From IMG/VR virus record IMGVR_UViG_3300025820_000004, positions 1-37,675 of that record: a stretch of 37,675 bases of DNA. The stretch is one strand, 5' to 3'. A program made the position numbers and the translations under genes. The notes under the pieces were generated by a model. That model had not been told where the DNA came from. It searched no databases and saw only the letters and a list, made by a program, of their open reading frames with translations. Below are positions 6,816 through 24,000 of this stretch, one piece after another. How positions within the stretch are numbered: the stretch's first letter is position 1; each line of letters opens with the position of its first letter. The stretch comes from a virus.

Positions 6816-6944
6816 TTTTATTAAAAGCTTTGCGGATAATTACCAATGAGGTTAAACAGTAGACAGGTAGCAGGCAAGAAGTAAATAGGAAATAGACAGT
6901 ATAAACCAATCAGAGAAAGGTAAATAATTATCAGACAAAAAACA

Positions 6945-7008
6945 ATTAACAAGTAGTTAACAACCAGTTAACAGGTAATTAACAAAATAGTTAACAAATA
7001 GTTAACAA
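6945..7008. repeat. Helically phased GTTAAC iteron array
   Basis: Six copies of a (A/G)TTAACA(A) word start at 6946, 6957, 6968, 6979, 6991 and 7002, that is every 11-12 bases, so all lie on one face of the helix. Flanking DNA is AT-rich. Such arrays bind replication initiators or repressors. It lies between the two regulatory modules in a stretch without genes. Confidence 0.65.
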
Positions 7009-7324
7009 AGGGATTAAATAATTAATAAGTAATAAATAATTAATAAATTGAAAAATAAACTCACCAATGAAAATTAATAAAAATTCTGTTGATAGTAAAA
7101 AAGAATAGCTTGTTTAAAGTCTCAAAAAAAATTAAATTTACCAAATGGATAACTAATAAAATAATCCTCTTTGAAAATTGTTAATAAAAGCCAATAATTG
7201 TTAACACTGTTTTGAAAGAAGGGACTTGGTAAAAAGTGGTTTTTTTGTTTTGTGAATAGTAGCATATTGCGAAGAGCAAGAGGGGGTAAAAGCAGGAATA
7301 AAGCAGGAATAAATCACCAAAAAT

Positions 7325-8086: not shown

Positions 8087-8403
8087 AAAGGATACTAAAG
8101 AATACTATTTGGTAATATCTTTGATGAAATCTTCCAAGCAGCAGGATGGCTCCTTCTGCTTGGAGATTTCAAGAATGTAAAATCTCTTTACTTCTGTTCT
8201 CGGTAGAAGATTTCTGGAAGAGAGAAATTTCCTCAGCTTGGATGGCAATACTGGCAGCACTTCGTAAACGTCTGCCAGGTACCTTTTCCTGTACCTTAGC
8301 AGACGATTCTTAAAAAACAAATAATCATTACCCACACAAAGGTCGTAGCTTTCATCTGCTACGACCCTTATCCCTTGTAGGAGAGAGTCATCAACTTCGA
8401 CTC
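8085..8403 (-). other. Inverted repeats inside cassette 1 gene
   Basis: Arms read on the plus strand: 8126-8141 with 8156-8170 (15 pairs, one bulged base); 8269-8275 with 8299-8305 (7 bp) enclosing 8277-8282 with 8291-8296 (6 bp); 8341-8349 with 8358-8366 (9 bp perfect, 8-base loop); 8385-8389 with 8399-8403 (5 bp). A weaker 5-bp pair (8085-8089 with 8108-8112) encloses the stop codon. All would form stems in the mRNA. Confidence 0.85.
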
Positions 8404-8443
8404 CCTCCCATCTTTCGAAGGTTAATTTTTTTAGAATTTCCAT
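8105..8443 (-). CDS. Cassette 1: small island protein, N-terminal-domain type
   Basis: A 112-residue protein of unknown function. Its start (ERWEGVEVDDSLLQGIRV, then DYLFFKNRLLRYRKRYLADVYEVLP and LRKFLSS) aligns with the N-terminal halves of the cassette 4 and 5 proteins (WEGVEV...QGVRF...LFFVRHELLHAYRY...VKVLNS), so it appears to be a single-domain member of that family. A Cys pair (SCCLED) is near the C-terminus. It has its own promoter, 5' hairpin, GGAGG site and terminator. The coding DNA holds several long inverted repeats (described separately). Neighbouring the ring nuclease cassette, it is a candidate anti-defence protein by association only. Confidence 0.75.
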   Translation of the reverse strand: MEILKKLTFERWEGVEVDDSLLQGIRVVADESYDLCVGNDYLFFKNRLLRYRKRYLADVYEVLPVLPSKLRKFLSSRNLLPRTEVKRFYILEISKQKEPSCCLEDFIKDITK

Positions 8444-8471
8444 ATCTTTTTACCTCCACTTTTTCATTCAA

Positions 8472-8523
8472 CCTGCCAATGGCAGGCATAATATATCATA
8501 CAATATATATATTCTTTTGTCAA
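8472..8523 (-). promoter_or_regulatory. Cassette 1 promoter and 5'-terminal hairpin
   Basis: TTGACA (8518-8523), 17-base spacer, TATGAT (8495-8500), then within about 8 bases the hairpin CCTGCCATTGGCAGG (8472-8486; 6-bp stem, ATT loop). The predicted start of transcription is at the hairpin's 5' edge. A GGAGG site follows. Confidence 0.9.
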
Positions 8524-8690
8524 TACTTTTCTATATTTTTACATCTACTTTTTATGCTATATCTCATTGATTTTTCAAGATTATTTAAATATTTTATGCT
8601 TATATAAAAAAATAAAATAAACAATTTTCAAATCCATTTTTTGTCAGCAGCCAAAAAAACAACAAAAAAAACAAAAAAAACACCAAGCAA
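8524..8690. other. Conserved AT-rich upstream block, cassette 1
   Basis: Upstream of each cassette promoter lies a related A/T-rich block with AAGATTATTTAAATATTT-like words, followed by A-rich tracts. No gene. It may act as an UP element or bend; that is inference from conservation between cassettes. Confidence 0.5.
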
Positions 8691-8755
8691 TAACAGACAC
8701 CAACAGACATAACTAAGCAGGCAATAACAGACATAATCAGACAAAAGCAGACATA
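8691..8755. repeat. AACAGACAT repeats (ATGTCCG-type) between cassettes 1 and 2
   Basis: Five imperfect copies of (A/G)(A/G)C(A/G)GACA(T/C), relatives of the AACGGACAT word found in the other inter-cassette gaps. They lie just past the cassette 2 terminator and upstream of the cassette 1 promoter region. Confidence 0.6.
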
Positions 8756-8781
8756 ACTACCGAAAAAAAGACAAAAAAAAA

Positions 8782-8802
8782 GGCACGGCAAAAAGCCGTG
8801 CC
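8782..8802 (-). terminator. Terminator of cassette 2
   Basis: Perfect 8-bp stem GGCACGGC / GCCGTGCC with a 5-base loop, followed on the minus strand by a long T run. Confidence 0.9.
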
Positions 8803-8807
8803 TTTCA

Positions 8808-9124
8808 GAGGGTGCTCCTCTCGTTTAAAGAGGAACACTCTCTTTTTTAATCTTCACTCCCTTCACTATTTCGTGAAAAGAATAGAGAGGTGTCCCCTTC
8901 CACTCACCGTAAAGGAGGAACACCCTCCTAATTCTCTTATGAGGAGCTTCCTGAACAAACTCCTCATAAGCCTCTTGTATTTTTTCATCGCAGGGAAGTG
9001 GGAGTAACTTTCTTAGAAGCGAGGGAGAAAACGCCCTCATTTCAAAAAAAGTCTCTCCCACTTCCAGGGGTCTTTCACTAAAAAACAAAAGACCCCCTCT
9101 CTGATAGAGGTTGTAAAAACCTCT
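8808..9124 (-). other. Inverted repeats inside cassette 2 gene
   Basis: Plus-strand arms: 8808-8821 with 8829-8842 (13 pairs, one G-U, one internal mismatch; encloses the stop codon at 8825); 8913-8918 with 8924-8929 (6 bp); 8936-8946 with 8960-8970 (11 bp perfect); 8994-9004 with 9055-9065 (11 bp perfect) enclosing 9021-9025 with 9034-9038 (5 bp); 9067-9075 with 9088-9096 (9 bp perfect); 9106-9112 with 9118-9124 (7 bp), which competes with 9096-9100 with 9106-9110 (5 bp). Confidence 0.9.
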
Positions 9125-9202
9125 ACCTTTTAAATAGAAATCCCAGGATAAGGGAGCGTGTATTCCTACCCCCATCCACTTCCGAACCAGTAAGTTTCTC
9201 AT
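8825..9202 (-). CDS. Cassette 2: small island protein, N-terminal-domain type
   Basis: A 125-residue protein of unknown function. The order WMGVGIHAP, then NLYQRGGLLFFSERPLEVGE, FSPSLLRKLLPL and RVFLLYGEWKGTPLY matches WEKVRVF, SLYQYGGHLLVFSKQ, YSPELVRILNS and GILFFYPQDS in the cassette 4 protein, so it is a member of the same family without the C-terminal domain. Promoter, 5' hairpin, GGAGG and terminator are its own. The coding DNA is among the most hairpin-dense of the island and visibly richer in G+C than the late genes. Anti-defence role is inferred from the neighbouring ring nuclease. Confidence 0.75.
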   Translation of the reverse strand: MRNLLVRKWMGVGIHAPLSWDFYLKGRGFYNLYQRGGLLFFSERPLEVGETFFEMRAFSPSLLRKLLPLPCDEKIQEAYEEFVQEAPHKRIRRVFLLYGEWKGTPLYSFHEIVKGVKIKKESVPL

Positions 9203-9228
9203 TCTTTTTACCTCCTTTCTTTATTCAG

Positions 9229-9283
9229 CCTGCCAATGGCAGGTTTCTATATACATACTATCATTTATATGCTCTTTTGTCAA
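9229..9283 (-). promoter_or_regulatory. Cassette 2 promoter and 5' hairpin
   Basis: TTGACA (9278-9283), 17-base spacer, TAGTAT (9255-9260), then CCTGCCATTGGCAGG (9229-9243) about 11 bases later and a GGAGG site before the ATG. Confidence 0.88.
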
Positions 9284-9559
9284 TACTTTTTTATATTTTT
9301 ACATCTACTTTTTATGCTATATCTTATTGATTTTCCGAAACTATTTAAATATTTTATGTTAGCATAAAAAAATTCAATAAAAAAACAATTACCTATTGAA
9401 TTTTCAGAACTATTTAAAATTTTTATACTTGTATAAAAAAAATTAAATCTAACCAAATAAAGCATTTTTTTTCTACTGAAAAAACAAACATCAAGACGGT
9501 AACAGACATTAGCGGACATACCTAAGCGGACATGACTAACCGAAAAAAGGACAAAAAAA
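9284..9559. other. Inter-cassette region 2/3
   Basis: AT-rich block with two related ATTGA(A/T)TTT...ATTTAAA-type segments (near 9330 and 9390), one more than in the other gaps, then the ATGTCCG-type repeats and the cassette 3 terminator. An open frame crossing it (9280-9564) is low-complexity and has no ribosome site. I see no gene. Confidence 0.5.
9495..9534. repeat. GCGGACAT repeats between cassettes 2 and 3
   Basis: Three copies of the word (AACAGACAT, AGCGGACAT, AGCGGACAT) spaced 13-14 bases apart, next to the cassette 3 terminator. Confidence 0.65.
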
Positions 9560-9580
9560 GGCACGGCAAAGAGCCGTGCC
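9560..9580 (-). terminator. Terminator of cassette 3 (ring nuclease gene)
   Basis: Perfect 8-bp stem GGCACGGC / GCCGTGCC with a 5-base loop, then a T run on the minus strand. A second, 12-bp hairpin enclosing the stop codon sits directly before it. Confidence 0.9.
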
Positions 9581-9584
9581 CATC

Positions 9585-9918
9585 AGGGTGAGGATACTAC
9601 CAAAGGGGGGATACCCTCACTCTCAAAATATCCTCACCCTCAAAAAGCAGTAAGGAAGAGCCTCCAACTCTTCCTTACTGTAAACTTTCCCTTCTGGGGG
9701 ACGAGCCCCCAGAAGCTGGAAGAGGTAGACACAATCTCCCTCCTTCAGTTTTAATGTCCTTCGGCAGACATCGATTGGTCTGCCTAAAATTTGGGACAGC
9801 AGCATTGCTGTCCCCTCATGCCCAACTGCACTTTCGCAGTCAGGCACTTCCTCTGCCTGAACGGGGCAAAACTCTACAATTGCCCCGGTCCTTTCTACTC
9901 CCGCGATCATCGCGGGGG
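9585..9918 (-). other. Nine consecutive inverted repeats covering the ring nuclease gene
   Basis: Plus-strand arms: 9585-9596/9629-9640 (12 bp perfect, around the stop codon); 9648-9660/9668-9680 (13 bp perfect, 7-base loop); 9691-9700/9706-9715 (10 bp, 5-base loop); 9716-9725/9739-9748 (9 of 10); 9763-9769/9778-9784 (7 bp); 9793-9801/9806-9814 (9 bp, 4-base loop); 9825-9829/9836-9840 (5 bp); 9840-9846/9854-9860 (7 bp, sharing one base with the last); 9862-9869/9880-9887 (8 bp); 9900-9906/9910-9916 (7 bp, 3-base loop). They follow one another with almost no gap. Confidence 0.92.
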
Positions 9919-9952
9919 TAAAAGCATTGACTAAATATTTCATTTTTTTCAC
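9623..9952 (-). CDS. acrIII-1: Cassette 3: AcrIII-1 viral ring nuclease (DUF1874)
   Basis: A 109-residue protein that matches the DUF1874/AcrIII-1 family (SIRV1 gp29, STIV B116, YddF): start MKYLVNAFTPAMI, the SAVGHEGTAMLLSQILG helix, LKEGDCVYLFQL and RPPEGKVYSKEEL. Established knowledge: these enzymes degrade cyclic tetra-adenylate, the second messenger of type III CRISPR, and so disarm Csm6/Csx1-type effectors. The residues expected for catalysis and binding are present: His 45 in GHEGT, Arg 84 and Glu 87 in ARPPEGK. Length is typical. It has its own promoter, 5' hairpin and terminator. G+C is clearly above the rest of the window and the gene is built of nine consecutive inverted repeats. 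Confidence 0.92.
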   Translation of the reverse strand: MKKMKYLVNAFTPAMIAGVERTGAIVEFCPVQAEEVPDCESAVGHEGTAMLLSQILGRPIDVCRRTLKLKEGDCVYLFQLLGARPPEGKVYSKEELEALPYCFLRVRIF

Positions 9953-9971
9953 CTCCTTTCTTTTTTTTTAA

Positions 9972-10027
9972 CCTGCCAATGGCAGGCTATCTAATTACAT
10001 ATTATCATTTATATTTCTTTTTGTCAA
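9972..10027 (-). promoter_or_regulatory. Cassette 3 promoter and 5' hairpin
   Basis: TTGACA (10022-10027), 17-base spacer, TAATAT (9999-10004), CCTGCCATTGGCAGG (9972-9986; flanks add a G-U and an A-U pair), then GGAGG before the ATG. Confidence 0.9.
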
Positions 10028-10160
10028 TACTTTTTTTATACTCTTTTTTATATATCTCATTGAAAAATAAGGATTATTTAAATATTTTATATTTATATAA
10101 AAAATTTAAATAATTTTTTCTGAAATTGATTTTCTATGCATCAATAAGTTGCAACATAAG

Positions 10161-10183
10161 CATCAACGGACATCAACGGACAT
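10161..10183. repeat. CATCAACGGA tandem repeat between cassettes 3 and 4
   Basis: Two perfect 10-base units followed by CAT, giving AACGGACAT at 10165 and 10175, exactly one helical turn apart. Same word as in the other gaps. Confidence 0.7.
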
Positions 10184-10199
10184 TGTCAGAGAAAAAAAA

Positions 10200-10221
10200 G
10201 GCATGGCTTTTTTGCCATGCC
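10200..10221 (-). terminator. Terminator of cassette 4
   Basis: 8-bp perfect stem GGCATGGC / GCCATGCC with a 6-base loop and a downstream T run. Compared with cassettes 2, 3 and 5 both arms carry a matching change (CATGG for CACGG), so the stem is kept by paired changes. Confidence 0.9.
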
Positions 10222-10227
10222 CTTTTA

Positions 10228-10770
10228 GAGTAAGGGGTTAATCCCCTTACTCATAAGCAAGCATCTCTTTCGTGACTATCTCGCACGGGCAGTCGCAAAT
10301 AAACAGTTCAAAACTTTCTCCTAGCCAGCTTTTTGGATATGGAATTTGTGCTATTCTGTCAATCACTGCTGGGCGACAAACTGGCCCCAAGAATTCTATT
10401 TTTACCAATATCTTGCCACTCCAATTTTTCCACCGTACGTCGCGAAGGTGATAAAGAAAATGAGTTGCCATGGAATCTTGTGGATAAAAGAAAAGAATCC
10501 CCTCAGCTTCCTCAAGTGCTGAGGGGTCTTTTTTAAAAAATCTTTTTACCAGAGCCCGCCACTCCGACATATGTGGCCGCCACTCTGGCATCTTCCTCAT
10601 CTTTTTATTGGAATTTAAGATTCTAACCAGTTCTGGCGAATACTTTTCAATATCCGCCACGTACTCCATATAGTTTTTGATTTGCTTACTAAAGACCAAT
10701 AGATGCCCTCCATATTGATACAGCGAGTATTTGTTGTTTTCCTCCACCCACTTTCCTTGAGTAGGAAAGT
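10228..10770 (-). other. Inverted repeats inside cassette 4 gene
   Basis: Plus-strand arms: 10228-10237/10243-10252 (10 bp perfect, 5-base loop, encloses the stop codon at 10247); 10499-10507/10518-10526 (9 bp perfect); 10750-10757/10763-10770 (8 bp perfect, 5-base loop). Fewer than in cassettes 1-3 but with perfect arms. Confidence 0.85.
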
Positions 10771-10810
10771 TAAAGACTCTAACCTTTTCCCATTTTCTTA
10801 TCTTTTTCAT
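10247..10810 (-). CDS. Cassette 4: two-domain island protein
   Basis: A 187-residue protein, clear paralogue of cassette 5 along its whole length. N-terminal part: WEKVRVFNFPTQGKW, YSLYQYGGHLLVFSKQ, YSPELVRILNS. C-terminal part: EGILFFYPQDS, HFLYHLRDVRWKNWSGKI, IAQIPYPKSWLGESFELFICDCPCEIV. The closing FICDxPCE(I/L)V motif, with conserved Cys, is shared with cassette 5 and, in altered form, with both halves of cassette 6. No known family recognised. Own promoter, 5' hairpin, AGGAGGTAGG ribosome site and terminator. It may be a host-takeover or anti-defence protein, inferred from location. Confidence 0.8.
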   Translation of the reverse strand: MKKIRKWEKVRVFNFPTQGKWVEENNKYSLYQYGGHLLVFSKQIKNYMEYVADIEKYSPELVRILNSNKKMRKMPEWRPHMSEWRALVKRFFKKDPSALEEAEGILFFYPQDSMATHFLYHLRDVRWKNWSGKILVKIEFLGPVCRPAVIDRIAQIPYPKSWLGESFELFICDCPCEIVTKEMLAYE

Positions 10811-10836
10811 TTTTTCCTACCTCCTTTTTTATTTTA

Positions 10837-10892
10837 CCTGCCAATGGCAGGCTATCTATATACATCATACTATATATATATCCTTTTGTCAA
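10837..10892 (-). promoter_or_regulatory. Cassette 4 promoter and 5' hairpin
   Basis: TTGACA (10887-10892), 17-base spacer, TATGAT (10864-10869), CCTGCCATTGGCAGG (10837-10851) and a GGAGG site. Confidence 0.9.
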
Positions 10893-10990
10893 TACTCTTT
10901 TTTATACTCTTTTTTATATATCCTATTGAAAAATAAGGATTATTTAAATAATTTATATTTGTATAAAAAAATAAAATAATTTTTTCTGAA

Positions 10991-11030
10991 GCAGACATCA
11001 ACGGACATAACCAGGCAGAACGGACATGAC
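10991..11030. repeat. AACGGACAT repeats between cassettes 4 and 5
   Basis: AGCAGACATCAACGGACATA and a further AACGGACAT, three copies of the inter-cassette word in 40 bases, next to the cassette 5 terminator. Confidence 0.65.
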
Positions 11031-11054
11031 CAACTGGAAAATGGACAAAAAAAA

Positions 11055-11075
11055 GGCACGGCAAAAAGCCGTGCC
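11055..11075 (-). terminator. Terminator of cassette 5
   Basis: Perfect 8-bp stem GGCACGGC / GCCGTGCC with a 5-base loop and a long T run on the minus strand. Confidence 0.9.
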
Positions 11076-11080
11076 CTCCT

Positions 11081-11521
11081 CTCGGCAAAGTTTATTCCTC
11101 TTTGTCGAGGTAATCTTCAATCACAACCAGCTCGCATGGCTGGTCACAAATGAAGATTTTGAATTCTTCTCCTATCCCTGCCTTCGGGAGAGGAGTACGA
11201 GCAATTTCTTCCATCATGTTTGGGCACTTGCCTGTCGGTTTTAATACCTCATTTTCAATCCAAATCCGTCCTTCATGGTCCCTCCAGCGAACAGACCTCG
11301 TCTGGTAAAGAAAAAATGTCTTTTTTTGCGACGGTTCAAAAACAAAAAGGCCTTTCACTTCTTCTGGTGAAAGATCTGACTTCGTAAAGAAATCCTTTAC
11401 AATCGTCCGTAACTCTGACAATAAATGTGGTAATTTTTCATCAGAGTTCAAAACTTTCACAATTCCTGCGGGAATTTCTTTTATATTGACTGTATACCGA
11501 TATGCATGTAATAATTCATGC
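11081..11521 (-). other. Inverted repeats inside cassette 5 gene
   Basis: Plus-strand arms: 11081-11090/11100-11109 (10 pairs, one G-U, encloses the stop codon at 11092); 11112-11119/11151-11158 (8 bp) enclosing 11126-11131/11139-11144 (6 bp); 11169-11173/11191-11195 (5 bp) with an inner 4-bp stem; 11292-11296/11300-11304 (5 bp, 3-base loop); 11352-11358/11367-11373 (7 bp); 11384-11389/11395-11400 (6 bp); 11411-11418/11441-11448 (8 bp); 11461-11466/11471-11476 (6 bp); 11504-11508/11517-11521 (5 bp). Confidence 0.85.
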
Positions 11522-11661
11522 CTGACAAAAAAAAGCGTATTCCCGTATTGATACAAACCAAACAACTTTTCCTCTTCTTCAAACCGCACCCCCTGCCGAG
11601 GAAAATTAACAACTTCTACCCCCTCCCATTCCCTTATTGCTACACTTTTCTTTTTTTTCAT
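11092..11661 (-). CDS. Cassette 5: two-domain island protein
   Basis: A 189-residue paralogue of cassette 4. Shared landmarks in order: REWEGVEVVNFPRQGVRF, GLYQYGNTLFFVRHEL, GIVKVLNSDEKLP, LSPEEVKGLFVFEPSQ, FFLYQTRSVRWRDHEGRI, IARTPLPKAGIGEEFKIFICDQPCELVVI. The Lys-rich start (MKKKKSVAIREW) follows a GGAGG site. Predicted soluble, alpha/beta, two domains of about 90 residues. Function unknown. Several hairpins in its coding DNA lie where cassette 4 also has hairpins but with different sequence. Confidence 0.8.
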   Translation of the reverse strand: MKKKKSVAIREWEGVEVVNFPRQGVRFEEEEKLFGLYQYGNTLFFVRHELLHAYRYTVNIKEIPAGIVKVLNSDEKLPHLLSELRTIVKDFFTKSDLSPEEVKGLFVFEPSQKKTFFLYQTRSVRWRDHEGRIWIENEVLKPTGKCPNMMEEIARTPLPKAGIGEEFKIFICDQPCELVVIEDYLDKEE

Positions 11662-11686
11662 TTTTTTATACCTCCTTTTTTTTATT

Positions 11687-11742
11687 TAGCCCATCAATGA
11701 CAGGCTATACTATATCATACTATATATATTCTTTTTTGTCAA
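11687..11742 (-). promoter_or_regulatory. Cassette 5 promoter and variant 5' hairpin
   Basis: TTGACA (11737-11742), 17-base spacer, TATGAT (11714-11719). The hairpin TAGCCTGTCATTGATGGGCT(A) at 11687-11707 differs from the canonical 15-mer but still pairs over 9 bp as RNA, using two G-U pairs, with the same ATT loop. Confidence 0.88.
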
Positions 11743-11856
11743 TACCTTTTTTATATTTTTTTATTTATATATCTCATTGAAAAATAAGAATTATTTAAAT
11801 AATTTATATTTGTATAAAAAAACAGATAATTTTTCTGAAATTGGTATTTTTCTTCT

Positions 11857-11875
11857 CAGACATCAATTGATATTT
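11857..11875. repeat. Degenerate ATGTCCG-type word between cassettes 5 and 6
   Basis: One recognisable CAGACATCAA followed by TTGATAT. The weakest of the inter-cassette repeat clusters. Confidence 0.4.
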
Positions 11876-11898
11876 CCATAGAGAAAAAACAAAAAAAA

Positions 11899-11920
11899 GG
11901 ACATGGCAAAATCCATGCCC
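11899..11920 (-). terminator. Terminator of cassette 6
   Basis: Minus-strand stem GGGCATGG / CCATGTCC (one G-U pair) with a 6-base loop and a T run. Diverged in sequence from the other five but same design. Confidence 0.8.
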
Positions 11921-11943
11921 TAAAAATTTTTATTCTTCCTTTT

Positions 11944-12810
11944 TTACTCTTCCACCATTTCTTCCACTTTCTCTGTCTCCTCTATCTTGCATTGTGAACC
12001 CGCTACATACATCTTCAAGCACTCATGTGCACTTTCTGATTTTGCTATCAAGGTTATTTTAGCTTCAGTCCGAGCTGGAACAAGAATTTCTTCCCTTTTA
12101 TAAAATTTATCTCCAAACTTATCTTTCTCCTCCCATTGTAACTCCTGTGTTTGATACAGATAACAGCAAGAGCCACTTTGGGAGGAAACTGGAACGAATA
12201 TTAAATTTTTGTTAGAGGCCCGCCATATTTCAAACGGACCTTCAATGTACAGTTGCCCGTCGTATATCATTGTTTCTAACTCCTTGTTTATTTGGATATA
12301 CCACTCGTCATATCCTACCCCCCACTTGTATATTTTCCTGTCGGGGAGATCTACGAATTTTTTTACCTTCATCCCTGTCTCTTGTATCACCTCCTCTATT
12401 ACCTCTACTTTTTCTACCCTGCAAGGTTTATTTACCACCAGAACTTTAGCCTCTGGTACTTCTATCAGTTTTTTCACCTCCACTTCAAAAGGAACTTTCG
12501 GGACAACAACCTCTCTTACATACTGGTTCAGCTCGCACCATGTGCGCTGCTGGTACATGCACCATTGGCAGGAAGTGGAAGAAGGAAAGAAAAATAAAAA
12601 GTTATCTTGTTTTATTAGGTCAAACACTTCTTTGACTCTTAAGGTCTCTTCGTCTTCATTATAAAGAAAATCAAGTTCCTTATCTACGCAGAAATAGAAC
12701 TCCTCCCCTAAGATGCCCCAACGGAAGACATACCAGTTGGGGAAAAGCTCTTCTGGCTGTGGTCTAAAAACCCTCAGCTCTTTCTCCTGTTTTACTCCTT
12801 TGATTATCAT
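11944..12810 (-). CDS. Cassette 6: internally duplicated island protein
   Basis: A 288-residue protein of unknown function made of two copies of one domain. Copy 1 (about residues 27-139) runs YVFRWGILGEEFYFCVDKEL, FLFFFPSS, MYQQRTW, VVNKPCRVEKVEV. Copy 2 (about 160-285) runs IYKWGVGYDEWYIQINKEL, LIFVPVSSQ, YLYQTQELQW, YVAGSQCKIEETEKV. The FxFxPS...xLYQT...PC pattern is shared with the C-terminal domain of cassettes 4 and 5. Cys is frequent (CQWC at 81-84, CC at 215-216). It has its own promoter, hairpin and terminator, but its coding DNA lacks the long inverted repeats of cassettes 1-5, so it acts as an internal comparison. Confidence 0.78.
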   Translation of the reverse strand: MIIKGVKQEKELRVFRPQPEELFPNWYVFRWGILGEEFYFCVDKELDFLYNEDEETLRVKEVFDLIKQDNFLFFFPSSTSCQWCMYQQRTWCELNQYVREVVVPKVPFEVEVKKLIEVPEAKVLVVNKPCRVEKVEVIEEVIQETGMKVKKFVDLPDRKIYKWGVGYDEWYIQINKELETMIYDGQLYIEGPFEIWRASNKNLIFVPVSSQSGSCCYLYQTQELQWEEKDKFGDKFYKREEILVPARTEAKITLIAKSESAHECLKMYVAGSQCKIEETEKVEEMVEE

Positions 12811-13704: not shown

Positions 13705-13948
13705 TGTTTACCACTCCAAAAAATGAAAAAATTGGTAAACAATATATAAAATTGGTAAACACTAAGTAAACACCAAGTAAACAAGTTGGTAAACATATGT
13801 ATATATATAAAGTATTGAAAATATTATATTTATATATATGGTAAACATTTTTATATATAGGGAAATATATCGCATGGTAGGTGTTTACCACTTTGTTTAC
13901 CAATCTGTTTACCATCCTGTTTACCATGTGTTTGTCTGGTGTTTACCA
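13705..13948. repeat. GGTAAACA iteron array with AT-rich core: candidate replication origin
   Basis: Copies of TTGGTAAACA or AAGTAAACA lie at 13732, 13752, 13764, 13775, 13786 and 13839; the reverse complement TGTTTACCA lies at 13705, 13882, 13894, 13906, 13918 and 13940. Spacing within runs is 11-12 bases, so sites share a helix face. The two runs face each other across a core (13796-13880) of almost pure A/T. This is the layout of an iteron-type origin with an unwinding element, directly beside the primase-helicase gene. Confidence 0.75.
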
Positions 13949-20302: not shown

Positions 20303-20517
20303 TAGCAGAAGTTATTGAAACATTAGCTAAAACGGCTAAAAGAGATAGTTGTTTTAACTGCTATTACTTAAAGATTAAAAAAGGAGAAATATGGTGTGAG
20401 AAAGGCATGATAGAGAGGTTTAATCTTCTTGATAAAAAAGAGTTTAATCGCAATTATAAAAAGATTATAAAAGAAAACAAAAACTGTGAATATATAGCCA
20501 CAGGAATATTTGAGTGA
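20299..20517 (+). CDS. Small Cys-motif protein
   Basis: A 72-residue protein with CFNCYYL (Cys 18, 21), EIWCEKG (Cys 33) and NKNCEY (Cys 62), four cysteines in a pattern that could bind zinc or an iron-sulfur cluster. Starts inside the resolvase stop (ATGA) and is followed by a strong ribosome site. Small zinc proteins of this kind are common in phage recombination operons. No named family. Confidence 0.68.
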   Translation: MIAEVIETLAKTAKRDSCFNCYYLKIKKGEIWCEKGMIERFNLLDKKEFNRNYKKIIKENKNCEYIATGIFE

Positions 20518-20530
20518 AAGGAGGTATAAA

Positions 20531-21466
20531 ATGAAAGACTTAGCTTTAAAATCAATGTGTGACACTTATAAGATGGTTCAAAAAATAAGAGTTGCCGCAG
20601 AAAACCGTCTGCGGGCAATCAAGCAAGAGTATGATGAAAAAGACCCAAGAAGAATTATCGCACTCAACCACATCAAAAGTATTGAAAGATTTGAGAAAGA
20701 AGTAGTTAAAGAAGCAGATGAAGTATTAAGTAGTTTTCCTATCTACGCAGAGTTTCTAAGTAAAGTCAATGGAATAAGTGTTAGAACCTCTTTGAGATTG
20801 CTCTCCCTGGGGCTTGACATAAATAAGGAGCTGTCAAGCTGGTATGCATACTTTGGAGTTGTTCCTATTTACTGGGCTTGTACCTGCGAAAAAGGACATA
20901 AGGTCTTATTACCTAAAGACCCTTTTTTAACAGGAGCAACTTGCATTCAATCTGTTAAAACAAATTCAGACAGCGATGTTGTCAAAGATGAAGAAACAGG
21001 AAAAATACAAATGGTTGAAAGAGTAGAGATGAGAAAATGTGGAGCAAAAATTGTCTCTGCAGAACCTAAGCCACCAACAAAGGTTAGAGGATATTACCAC
21101 TTCTGGAATGATTATGCCAAAGAAACATATTTTATTGTTACTGACTATTGGGTTAAAAAACCAGATAATTCTTTTTATGGAAGAGTGTTTATAAATGAAA
21201 GAAGAAAGCTAATGGAAAGAGGCGTTGATTATGTTAGGACTGTTAAAGGCAAGGTAGTTCCAAGTAGAAGAGCTACATTGTCTGCAAGAAGAAAAGCATT
21301 TAAAATATTCCTTGCACATATGTATCAAGCGAGTAGAGAACTAAATGGCATGCAATATAGAATGCCATATAGCTTTGAATTCCTAAAGCATGATGATTTT
21401 ATTGACTGGAAAAAGGTGTTAGAGATAGAAAAAAGTTTGAGAAAAAAAGATAAAAAAATTAGATAA
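20531..21466 (+). CDS. IS110 C-terminal-like (Transposase_20) protein lacking the nuclease domain
   Basis: A 311-residue protein following AAAGGAGGT. Residues about 70-115 (SFPIYAEFLSKVNGISVRTS, then LGLDINKELSSWYAYFGVVP) match the helix-hairpin-helix start of the IS110/IS116 C-terminal domain. Residues about 265-290 (RATLSARRKAFKIFLAHMYQ) match its end. Between them is an insert with Cys 117, 119, 138 and 170 and His 123, a possible zinc knuckle. The N-terminal 70 residues are a charged helix in place of the DEDD/RuvC-like domain of true IS110 transposases. Being the last gene of a recombination operon, next to a resolvase, it may bind branched DNA. It is unlikely to transpose by itself. Confidence 0.7.
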   Translation: MKDLALKSMCDTYKMVQKIRVAAENRLRAIKQEYDEKDPRRIIALNHIKSIERFEKEVVKEADEVLSSFPIYAEFLSKVNGISVRTSLRLLSLGLDINKELSSWYAYFGVVPIYWACTCEKGHKVLLPKDPFLTGATCIQSVKTNSDSDVVKDEETGKIQMVERVEMRKCGAKIVSAEPKPPTKVRGYYHFWNDYAKETYFIVTDYWVKKPDNSFYGRVFINERRKLMERGVDYVRTVKGKVVPSRRATLSARRKAFKIFLAHMYQASRELNGMQYRMPYSFEFLKHDDFIDWKKVLEIEKSLRKKDKKIR

Positions 21467-21492
21467 ACTTAGTAACAGGAAAGTGGAGTAAA

Positions 21493-22611
21493 CTACCACG
21501 CCCTTACGGACGGAGCTTTAAGAGGAATATGAGAACTAATAAAATTCAACATATTCATCTTTTCGGGACGGTTTACGATCGCCCCCCCCAACTGGGCAAT
21601 ATTTATCGCCGCATTGACATCAGAGTCAATGGAATTGCCGCAGTTTGGACAACTAAAGTGCTTGCCATTTCTATTACCAATGCACTTGCATACATTGCAA
21701 ATTTTGCTTGTATAACGAGGGTCAACCACAACAAGAGGGACACCAGCAAGTTTAGCCTTATATTCAAGAAAAGAACGAAGTTGAGAAAAAGCCCAAGAGT
21801 GGTGTTTTCGTCTTTGAGCTTTTCTAACTCTGGTTCTTTCTCTAATGTAGGTCAAGTCTTCAATAGCAATTCCTTTATTTTCAGATTTAGCTTTTTCTAC
21901 AATTTGCTTACTGATAGTGTGATTGGTAATAGTGGCAAATCTCTGTTCTCTGCCTTTAAGCCGTTTCAGAAGTTTTTTGCTTCCTTTTGTGCCTTTGCGT
22001 TGAACAGAGCGACGCACTTTAAAATATTTATCTCTAACCTTATTCAAGTTTTGAGAACTAAAACTCGTTCCATCAGAGAGCGTTGCAGTATCTGTAATTC
22101 CAAAATCCACCCCGATAAATTCTTCAACATCTTTTATATCTTCTTCTGGAACTTCAATGGCTTGGAAAAGATAAAACTTCCCCTTCTTGTAAACAAGGTC
22201 TGCCTCACCTTTAATATAAGGAAGGTATTTAGGATTATGGCAAACAAAAGGGATTTTCAACCTTCCATCCACAGACCAGATAGAGACAGAATTATCTTTT
22301 TTGTAAGAAAGAATGCGAGCATCATAAGTTATTGCGCCAAGAGGTTTAAATTTTCTTTGAAATTTTTTACCAGATTTGTAAGCGTTTGCAACCTTAGAAA
22401 TACAACGAATAAGAACCTGAGCAGAAAGATTAGAGGTGGCTTTAATTTTGTGATAAACAAGATGGTGAAGTTTAAATTGATTGAAAACTTTGTTATCCCA
22501 TGCAACCTTAGAAATTTCATTACAAATACGGTTGCACTCTTTAATAGTTTCAAGAAGATAATTCGCTTGTTCATCAGAAGGCAAAAGTTTTATTTGCAAT
22601 GTAAGTTTCAT
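21493..22611 (-). CDS. tnpB: TnpB RNA-guided nuclease
   Basis: Compact RuvC nuclease related to Cas12; known TnpB proteins use an RNA from the element's right end to cut DNA at old donor sites. All catalytic motifs look intact (numbering from an upstream in-frame Met, six residues before the start chosen here): GVDFGITD with Asp 175, GIAIEDL with Glu 258, DSDVNAA with Asp 337, and the zinc ribbon CNVC...CPNC (311, 314, 327, 330). Start is set at ATG 22611 (MKLTLQIKLLPS), because the upstream ATG lies within the promoter. About 372 residues, normal for the family. The gene likely is active or only recently inactive. It has no relation to phage operons except its position. Confidence 0.93.
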   Translation of the reverse strand: MKLTLQIKLLPSDEQANYLLETIKECNRICNEISKVAWDNKVFNQFKLHHLVYHKIKATSNLSAQVLIRCISKVANAYKSGKKFQRKFKPLGAITYDARILSYKKDNSVSIWSVDGRLKIPFVCHNPKYLPYIKGEADLVYKKGKFYLFQAIEVPEEDIKDVEEFIGVDFGITDTATLSDGTSFSSQNLNKVRDKYFKVRRSVQRKGTKGSKKLLKRLKGREQRFATITNHTISKQIVEKAKSENKGIAIEDLTYIRERTRVRKAQRRKHHSWAFSQLRSFLEYKAKLAGVPLVVVDPRYTSKICNVCKCIGNRNGKHFSCPNCGNSIDSDVNAAINIAQLGGAIVNRPEKMNMLNFISSHIPLKAPSVRAW

Positions 22612-22617
22612 AATGTT

Positions 22618-22646
22618 ATTATACATCATATATTTGAAAATGTCAA
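22618..22646 (-). promoter_or_regulatory. Consensus promoter giving a nearly leaderless tnpB transcript
   Basis: TTGACA (22641-22646), 17-base spacer, TATAAT (22618-22623): both hexamers are perfect. The expected start of transcription falls at or within a few bases of the ATG at 22611, and no ribosome site is visible. Confidence 0.8.
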
Positions 22647-22670
22647 GAGAAATTTTTCAGAAAGGAGAAT

Positions 22671-22709
22671 GGCTTTCCTCCCCTTCCTTACAGAAGGGGT
22701 CTCCGAGCC
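22671..22709 (-). other. Left-end hairpin of the IS605-type element
   Basis: CCCCTTC (22680-22686) and GAAGGGG (22693-22699) form a 7-bp stem with a 6-base loop; GGCT (22671-22674) and AGCC (22706-22709) close an outer stem. IS605-type transposases recognise such imperfect end hairpins. Confidence 0.7.
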
Positions 22710-22740
22710 ATGTTTTGAAATGAACCAACAAGTTTTAAAT

Positions 22741-23975
22741 ATTAAGCAACAGGAGACAAAAAATGAGTTAAAAGTGATAAAAAGTTTGAGTTTGAGTAAG
22801 CAAAAAACATGGAGATTAAATAAATTACAAGGCGCAAGTTAAAAGTGAGAAGCTGCAGAGTTTATGAATGAATTAAAGGATACAAGCTACAGAGTGCTGA
22901 AATGAGTTAGCTTGAATAAGCAACGTAAGAATAAGTTAAAAAATGGAGTGATTGAATAAAAAGTTAACATGAAAAAGTGACATATGAAAAGAACGAGTTA
23001 CCATAGCTAAAGCAACACATTAGAAGAATGAGTTATTCCCTCCAAGAAACATTGGATAAGAATGAGTTATCTTGAACAAGCAACAGGAGAAAAAAATGAG
23101 TTAACAAATGAGAGTTACAAATTGGAAGCAACATGGGTTAAGAATGAGTTTTATTCTGTCAGCAACATGGACTGACAATGAGTTATTTTAAGAGAGCACA
23201 TGGAGTGGGGAATGAATTTGTTGTAACAAGTAACAGAGAGTGTGAATGAGTTATCTCTAAAAAGCAACAGAAAGTTTAAATGAGTTAATCTATGAGAGCA
23301 ACATTGCGTAGGAATGAGTTAAGAGCTGAAAACAACATTAAAAAAAGAACGAGTTGGCATTCAGAAGTAACATGACAAGTAAACGAGTTAGCATGTGAGA
23401 AAAAATGAGTTACTTGGTATGAGCAACAGGCAGTTGAAATGAGTTATTTGTAGAAAGTAACAGAAAGTTTAGAATGAGTTAAAGGTTAGGAGCAAAACCA
23501 GATTAAAATGAATTTAAGAACGGAAGCAACATGGAAAACGAATGAGTTAGTATCTGAGAGTTACACCAGAAAGAAATGAGTTATTTAAAAGGAGTAACAG
23601 AAGGTGTAAATGAGTTATCTTTTGAGAACAACACGGAAGTTAAATGAGTTACAATTAGCAAGCAACAAATGGGTAAAATGAGTTACATAAATGGAGCAAC
23701 AAGCACTTGGAATGAGTTACTAAAACAGAGCAACATGCCTTTAGAATGAGTTATTTTACCAGAGTAACAAGCCTTGGAATGAGTTACTCTTAAAGAGCAA
23801 CAAAAGGTAGGAATGAGTTATTTGGATAGAGTAACAAAAACGCAGAATGGTTCACTCCATTCTCTCAAATTGGAATGAGTTATTTTAGTAGAGCAACATG
23901 CTTTTAGAATGAGTTATTCTTAAAGAGCAACATTAAGTGGGAATGAGTTATTTGGATAGAGTAACAGTATTTCGA
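22741..23975. repeat. 34-bp-period repeat array, about 30 copies, between convergent operons
   Basis: Each unit is (GA)ATGAGTTA, about 10 variable bases, G(C/T)AACA, about 8 variable bases. From 23028 on, the ATGAGTTA box recurs at 23062, 23096, 23144, 23178, 23212, 23246, 23280, 23314, 23349, 23383, 23405, 23439, 23474, 23508, 23542, 23576, 23610, 23644, 23678, 23712, 23746, 23779, 23813, 23875, 23909 and 23943: 34 bases nearly every time. Copies before 23000 are decayed. The linkers differ. No ORF fits it. A protein-binding array (partition, packaging, replication or termination) is most likely; the role is unknown. Confidence 0.9.
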
Positions 23976-24000
23976 AATGGTTTACTCCATTCTTTCAAAA
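23775..24000. repeat. 130-bp tandem duplication including the tail of the adjacent gene
   Basis: The block near 23781-23869 recurs 130 bases later at 23911-23999: TTAAAGAGCAACA at 23790 and 23920, GAATGAGTTATTTGGATAGA at 23811 and 23941, and AATGG(TTC/TTT)ACTCCATTCT at 23846 and 23976. The last element is the 3' end of the giant minus-strand gene; the first copy still reads FERME-stop on the minus strand. Confidence 0.85.

What the first reader, a model, noticed from the sequence alone, without database searches (positions are those of the whole stretch)
22741..23975. A 1.2-kb array with a strict 34-bp period and two alternating short boxes
About 30 units of ATGAGTTA, 10 variable bases, G(C/T)AACA, 8 variable bases. 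The period is 34 in almost every step while linkers vary, so spacing and boxes are under selection, or the array spreads by unequal exchange and only boxes are kept. Offsets 18 and 16 put the two boxes about 17 bases apart throughout. It is not CRISPR: no full-length identical repeat. Placed at the meeting point of early and late transcription, it could be a partition or packaging site, a replication terminus, a repeated protein-binding decoy, or the source of a repeat RNA if late transcription reads through.
Basis: seen in the sequence. Interest (0 to 1): 0.9.

Follow-up and report, generated by a model that had tools for sequence, protein, structure and literature searches.

The report
A viral TIGR-Tas guide-RNA array
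The repeat array is a TIGR array, a string of about 33 tiny two-part guide RNAs that a virus pairs with its own Tas protein, probably to find chosen DNA sequences; it is a new member of an RNA-guided family described in 2025, and its guide parts change much faster than the rest of the genome.

Summary
The 34-bp array (22727-23999, + strand, 32 parsed units) is two alternating repeats, RAATGAGTTA and RAGYAACA, separated by two 9-nt stretches with almost no conservation. It belongs to the gene just upstream (20531-21466), whose protein matches NCBI's TIGR-Tas model (E 3e-24; four relatives pass the curated cut-off) and the solved TasR and TasH structures. So this is a TIGR-Tas system (Faure et al. 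2025, PMC12045711). No known nuclease domain was found, so it is TasA-like. A TnpB insertion element has landed inside the array and separates unit 1 from the rest. Seven other viral contigs carry the same pair of tas gene and array; their terminases, where found, are only about 25% identical to this one, which argues against a packaging site. Between two close relatives, spacers differ at 29% of positions against about 6.5% in flanking DNA, in an all-or-none pattern: units are either kept or replaced. In one tail duplication spacer A is kept while spacer B has diverged. No target could be identified above chance. RNA processing and DNA binding are inferred from the family, not shown here.

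The parts
20531..21466 (+). tas gene (TasA-like). ORF opens at a TTG at 20510; the ATG at 20531 aligns with the starts of the relatives
   Evidence: NCBIfam NF052498 TIGR_Tas_endo E 3.3e-24, 86 bits against cut-off 100; four relatives 105-111 bits; PDB 9mty TasR E 4.8e-10; phrog_4285 E 2e-19; Foldseek top rows are TasH complexes
21464..21488 (+). first array unit: truncated edge at the tas stop codon, loop repeat AGTAACA at 21471-21477, spacer B
   Evidence: sequence; same start of the array at the tas stop in L013, L014, L017, L019
21489..22725 (.). IS200/IS605-type TnpB element inserted in the array (boundaries approximate); tnpB 21493-22629 on the - strand, hairpin end near 22666-22712
   Evidence: Pfam Cas12f1-like_TNB; NCBIfam guided_TnpB E 1.3e-55; absent from the same place in the relatives
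22727..23999 (+). main TIGR array: 32 units of edge AATGAGTTA, 9-nt spacer A, loop AGYAACA, 9-nt spacer B
23744..23999 (+). 130-bp tail duplication; three unit pairs keep spacer A (3/27 changed) and differ in spacer B (16/26)
   Evidence: Tandem Repeats Finder; Fisher p 1.6e-4
23844..23863 (.). hairpin AGAATGG-TTCACT-CCATTCT inside the array; scored as terminator-like on the - strand only
23976..23991 (.). end of array: 3'-truncated edge AATG forming hairpin AATGG-TTTACT-CCATT, overlapping the end of the convergent late gene
   Evidence: sequence; fold

Best explanation
The array and the gene upstream form a viral TIGR-Tas system. Shown here: a Tas-family protein with no recognised nuclease domain is encoded directly upstream, and the array has the TIGR layout of edge repeat, 9-nt spacer A, loop repeat, 9-nt spacer B, about 33 times. 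Inferred from the family: the array is transcribed in the tas direction, cut within the edge repeats into 34-nt tigRNAs, each tigRNA is held by a Tas dimer, and the two spacers pair with opposite strands of an 18-bp target. Inferred and less certain (about 0.5): being nuclease-free, the complex acts by binding and bending DNA, for example by blocking genes or replication of rival mobile elements or of the host.
For: Protein: NCBIfam TIGR_Tas_endo hits all five aligned relatives, best 3.2e-31; four relatives exceed the curated cut-off; profile hit to TasR 9mty E 4.8e-10 in two collinear stretches, the first at TasR residue 118; Foldseek's best rows are TasH-tigRNA complexes, though from a low-confidence model. 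Array: two conserved boxes and two information-free 9-nt spacers over 133 distinct units. Linkage: tas and array together in every relative. Orientation is always that of tas, and the array starts at the tas stop codon. Spacers turn over faster than flanking DNA.
Against: No RNA data. The window's own protein scores 86 bits against a cut-off of 100. No target was found above chance. The insertion at residues about 110-190 of the protein has no identified fold, so a nuclease there is not excluded. The TnpB insertion may cut the main array off from the tas promoter, so this copy could be poorly expressed.
Confidence: 0.94

Rival explanations
1. The array is a double-stranded DNA site (centromere, origin or packaging site) bound by the upstream protein.
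For: Regular spacing, boxes kept, placed between convergent gene blocks, adjacent to a nucleic-acid-binding protein gene.
Against: The protein belongs to an RNA-guided family. The 9-nt spacers turn over all-or-none while the repeats stay. L013 spreads the units over several intergenic gaps. Terminases of the same viruses are only about 25% identical.
Confidence: 0.03
2. A TIGR array, but decaying or silenced in this virus by the TnpB element.
For: The TnpB element splits unit 1 from the other units; the first units after it are degenerate (22727-22958).
Against: The tas frame is intact and most later units have near-perfect repeats, which would not last long without selection.
Confidence: 0.15
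3. A CRISPR array or an IS110 bridge-RNA locus.
For: Repeat and spacer layout; the protein shares the IS110 RNA-binding fold.
Against: Two alternating repeats of 7-10 nt, not one long repeat; the protein lacks an N-terminal DEDD/RuvC domain and starts at TasR residue 118.
Confidence: 0.01

Closest known systems
TIGR-Tas, TasA type (FpTIGR of Flavonifractor plautii; PMC12045711)
   Same: Nop-domain Tas protein without a recognised nuclease next to a dual-repeat array with 9-nt spacers; array starts with a 5'-truncated edge and ends in a 3'-truncated edge
   Different: About 33 units against the usual 5-15; 34-nt unit instead of 36; own repeat sequences; Tas carries an insertion of about 60-80 residues (relative to TasR and TasH) with four invariant cysteines; a TnpB element sits inside the array
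TIGR-TasR (TaTasR, PDB 9mty) and TasH (PDB 21kl)
   Same: Homologous coiled-coil and C-terminal RNA-binding parts
   Different: No RuvC or HNH domain found in the window protein
IS110/IS621 bridge-RNA recombinases
   Same: Shared RNA-binding fold
   Different: No DEDD catalytic domain; many short guides instead of one bridge RNA

Membership tests
TIGR-Tas | Nop-domain Tas protein encoded next to the array | tested here: met
   found in all relatives. The window's own protein alone is below the NCBIfam cut-off (86 of 100 bits) with E 3e-24.
TIGR-Tas | Two distinct alternating repeats of about 8-12 nt separated by two spacers of about 9 nt | tested here: met
   Information profile and spacer lengths
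[quoted passage not shown]
   Both truncated edges present. Strong terminator-like hairpin in L017 and L019; in the window only a short hairpin without a clear U-run
[quoted passage not shown]
   Both repeats start RA and end in pyrimidine-A, with a possible A-U (edge) or G-C (loop) pair, but the columns vary too little to show covariation
TIGR-Tas | Array transcribed and processed to tigRNAs bound by Tas | not testable with these tools
   No RNA data
TIGR-Tas | Spacers A and B pair with opposite strands of an adjacent target | tested here: inconclusive
   No excess of A + reverse-complement-B sites over controls in 173 kb of own and related viruses; three database scans gave 0-2 hits each, judged chance level
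CRISPR-Cas array | One long near-identical repeat between spacers | tested here: not met
   Two short alternating repeats
IS110 transposon | N-terminal DEDD/RuvC catalytic domain | tested here: not met
   Protein begins at the coiled coil, aligned to TasR residue 118; NF033542 transpos_IS110 hits one of five members at only E 0.07

The most novel reading that the evidence does not exclude
TIGR spacers are actively renewed as discrete 9-nt blocks. Spacers A and B can be exchanged independently, probably by recombination within the loop and edge repeats, giving the virus a fast-changing guide repertoire without any adaptation genes. The Tas protein with its cysteine-rich insertion would be a distinct viral TasA lineage.
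Probability: 0.4. Interest if true: 0.75.

Novelty: new member of a known kind. Interest (0 to 1): 0.56.

Why it matters
TIGR-Tas systems were described in 2025; how their arrays gain and change guides, and what natural targets they have, was left open (PMC12045711). Here is a set of close viral relatives in which spacer turnover can be measured against flanking DNA: 29% spacer change against about 6.5%, in all-or-none blocks. Fresh samples of the same communities could make the origin of spacers and their targets testable. The case also shows one RNA-guided element (TnpB) lodged inside the guide array of another RNA-guided system.

Tried and rejected
DNA search of phage records: only a 40-bp chance match. 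Tas protein against phage and plasmid records by tblastn: none at E 0.01; two weak hits at E 0.07-0.2 from another member. Array pattern and Tas alignment in 84,980 bacterial and archaeal genomes: none, so the host stays unknown. Prim-Pol and TerL as baits for relatives: none. Target search with the TIGR geometry: at control level; three whole-database target scans returned 0-2 hits, about what chance would give. General sharing of spacer A alone or B alone between units is mostly at the shuffled level, with a small excess for near-identical B (10 against a shuffled maximum of 8), so independent turnover rests mainly on syntenic pairs. Mutual information between unit columns: none beyond the shuffled maximum. 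Rfam: no match. PADLOC: no match for the Tas proteins. The predicted structure has mean pLDDT 60.6 and is only supporting evidence.

Full report
What is there. The window is a 37,675-bp virus record with 33.5% G+C. Early genes run on the + strand: ERF recombinase, PD-(D/E)XK nuclease, a sliding-clamp-like protein, a Holliday junction resolvase and a 318-aa protein. Late genes run on the - strand towards them. The array lies where the two blocks meet, on the + strand. The exact box pattern occurs 15 times on the + strand and never on the - strand or reversed. Thirty-two units can be parsed from 22727 to 23966. The unit is AATGAGTTA, 9 nt, AGYAACA, 9 nt.

Relatives. A pattern of two edge boxes and a loop box at exact spacing, searched in 2.9 million viral contigs, found five further contigs; the 318-aa protein, as single query and as alignment, found six each time, and the searches overlap. 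Together these are seven other contigs (L009; L012/L016; L010/L017; L011/L019; L013; L014; L018), of which L014 and L018 carry only a short, degenerate array of about four units. In each, the array starts at or just after the stop codon of the homologous gene and runs in the same direction. L013 spreads 44 parsed units over several intergenic gaps around the gene. The terminases, where found, are only about 25% identical to that of the window while the 318-aa proteins are 60-66% identical, so the array goes with this gene, not with packaging.

Units. Over 133 distinct units the two boxes are sharply conserved and the two stretches between them carry almost no information. Spacer A is 9 nt in 163 of 172 units, spacer B in 132 of 151. 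A purine precedes both boxes. Folded alone, a two-unit stretch has no more structure than shuffled sequence.

The protein. A profile of five relatives matches PDB 9mty at E 4.8e-10 in two collinear stretches, the first starting at residue 118 of the chain. A text search ties 9MTY to the TIGR-Tas paper (PMC12045711), whose solved structure is that of TasR. NCBIfam model TIGR_Tas_endo hits all five; four relatives score 105-111 bits (cut-off 100), L014 99.5 and the window protein 86. Foldseek ranks TasH-tigRNA complexes and then IS621 first, with the caveat of a weak model. The protein begins at the coiled coil, so it has no N-terminal RuvC or HNH domain; this makes it TasA-like. Compared with TasR, about 80 extra residues lie between the two aligned stretches; this part holds four invariant cysteines, C124, C126, C145 and C177. 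That it is a zinc-binding wedge is inference.

Fit to the known system. The paper describes two alternating repeats of 8-12 nt with 9-nt spacers, arrays next to the tas gene, truncated edge repeats at both ends, 36-nt tigRNAs and two spacers pairing with opposite DNA strands. Layout, gene and truncated ends match here. RNA processing and DNA targeting cannot be tested with sequence alone.

TnpB element. Right after the tas stop there is one array unit (21464-21488); then comes a TnpB element with its hairpin end; the array resumes near 22727. No relative has this insertion. It may uncouple the main array from the tas promoter.

Spacer turnover. L009 and L017 differ by roughly 3-11% per 250-bp window over 11 kb (typically about 6.5%), but by up to 32% within the array, which is also the main place with long gaps. 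In 20 syntenic units the spacers differ at 29% of positions on average, with an all-or-none distribution (0-5 or 8-13 differences of 18; dispersion 6.5, p 2e-17). The synteny was read from the alignment by eye. L009 and L016 have identical tas genes yet most of their differences, contig ends aside, lie in the array. Spacers A and B can change separately: one L009/L010 unit keeps B and loses A, and in the window's tail duplication A is kept (3/27 changed) and B is not (16/26; Fisher p 1.6e-4). The L013 internal duplication shows both patterns (read by eye). Outside syntenic pairs, sharing of single spacers is close to chance. Recombination through the repeats, perhaps by the phage's ERF protein, would explain this; that step is inference.

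Targets. With the geometry implied by the published 3' overhangs (spacer A followed by the reverse complement of spacer B, gap 0-2), 131 distinct spacer pairs have no excess of sites in 173 kb of own and related viral DNA over control geometries. Three full-database scans gave 2, 0 and 2 hits, judged to be at chance level. No array and no relative of the protein was found in the species-level genome collection, so host and targets remain unknown.

Verdict. It is a new member of a known kind, with an unusually long array and the first quantified spacer turnover I could find; the literature search was limited to an open-access library in which only one paper uses both TasA and tigRNA.

Noticed in passing
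L009 2402, L010 2216, L012 5831, L019 9315: The array ends with an inverted edge repeat (TTAACTCATT or close) that can pair over about 10 bp with the last edge repeat, and in principle with any other; possibly a terminator, possibly a built-in anti-repeat for processing.
   Followed up: partly
window 8105-12810: A block of small - strand genes that look related to each other (shared YQYG..LLVF-type motifs), with short GCGGACAT-like repeats between some of them.
   Followed up: no
window 6944-7017 and 13882-13933: Iteron-like direct repeats: 11-bp TTAACAAATAG and 12-bp TGTTTACCATTC; candidate replication origin or operators.
   Followed up: no
window 22618-22646: A perfect TTGACA-17-TATAAT promoter-like site on the - strand, placed to drive tnpB away from the array.
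   Followed up: no
L013 3850-6180 and 2400-3290: TIGR units fill several intergenic gaps in one gene block, up to just before the start codons of the next genes, always in the gene direction.
   Followed up: partly
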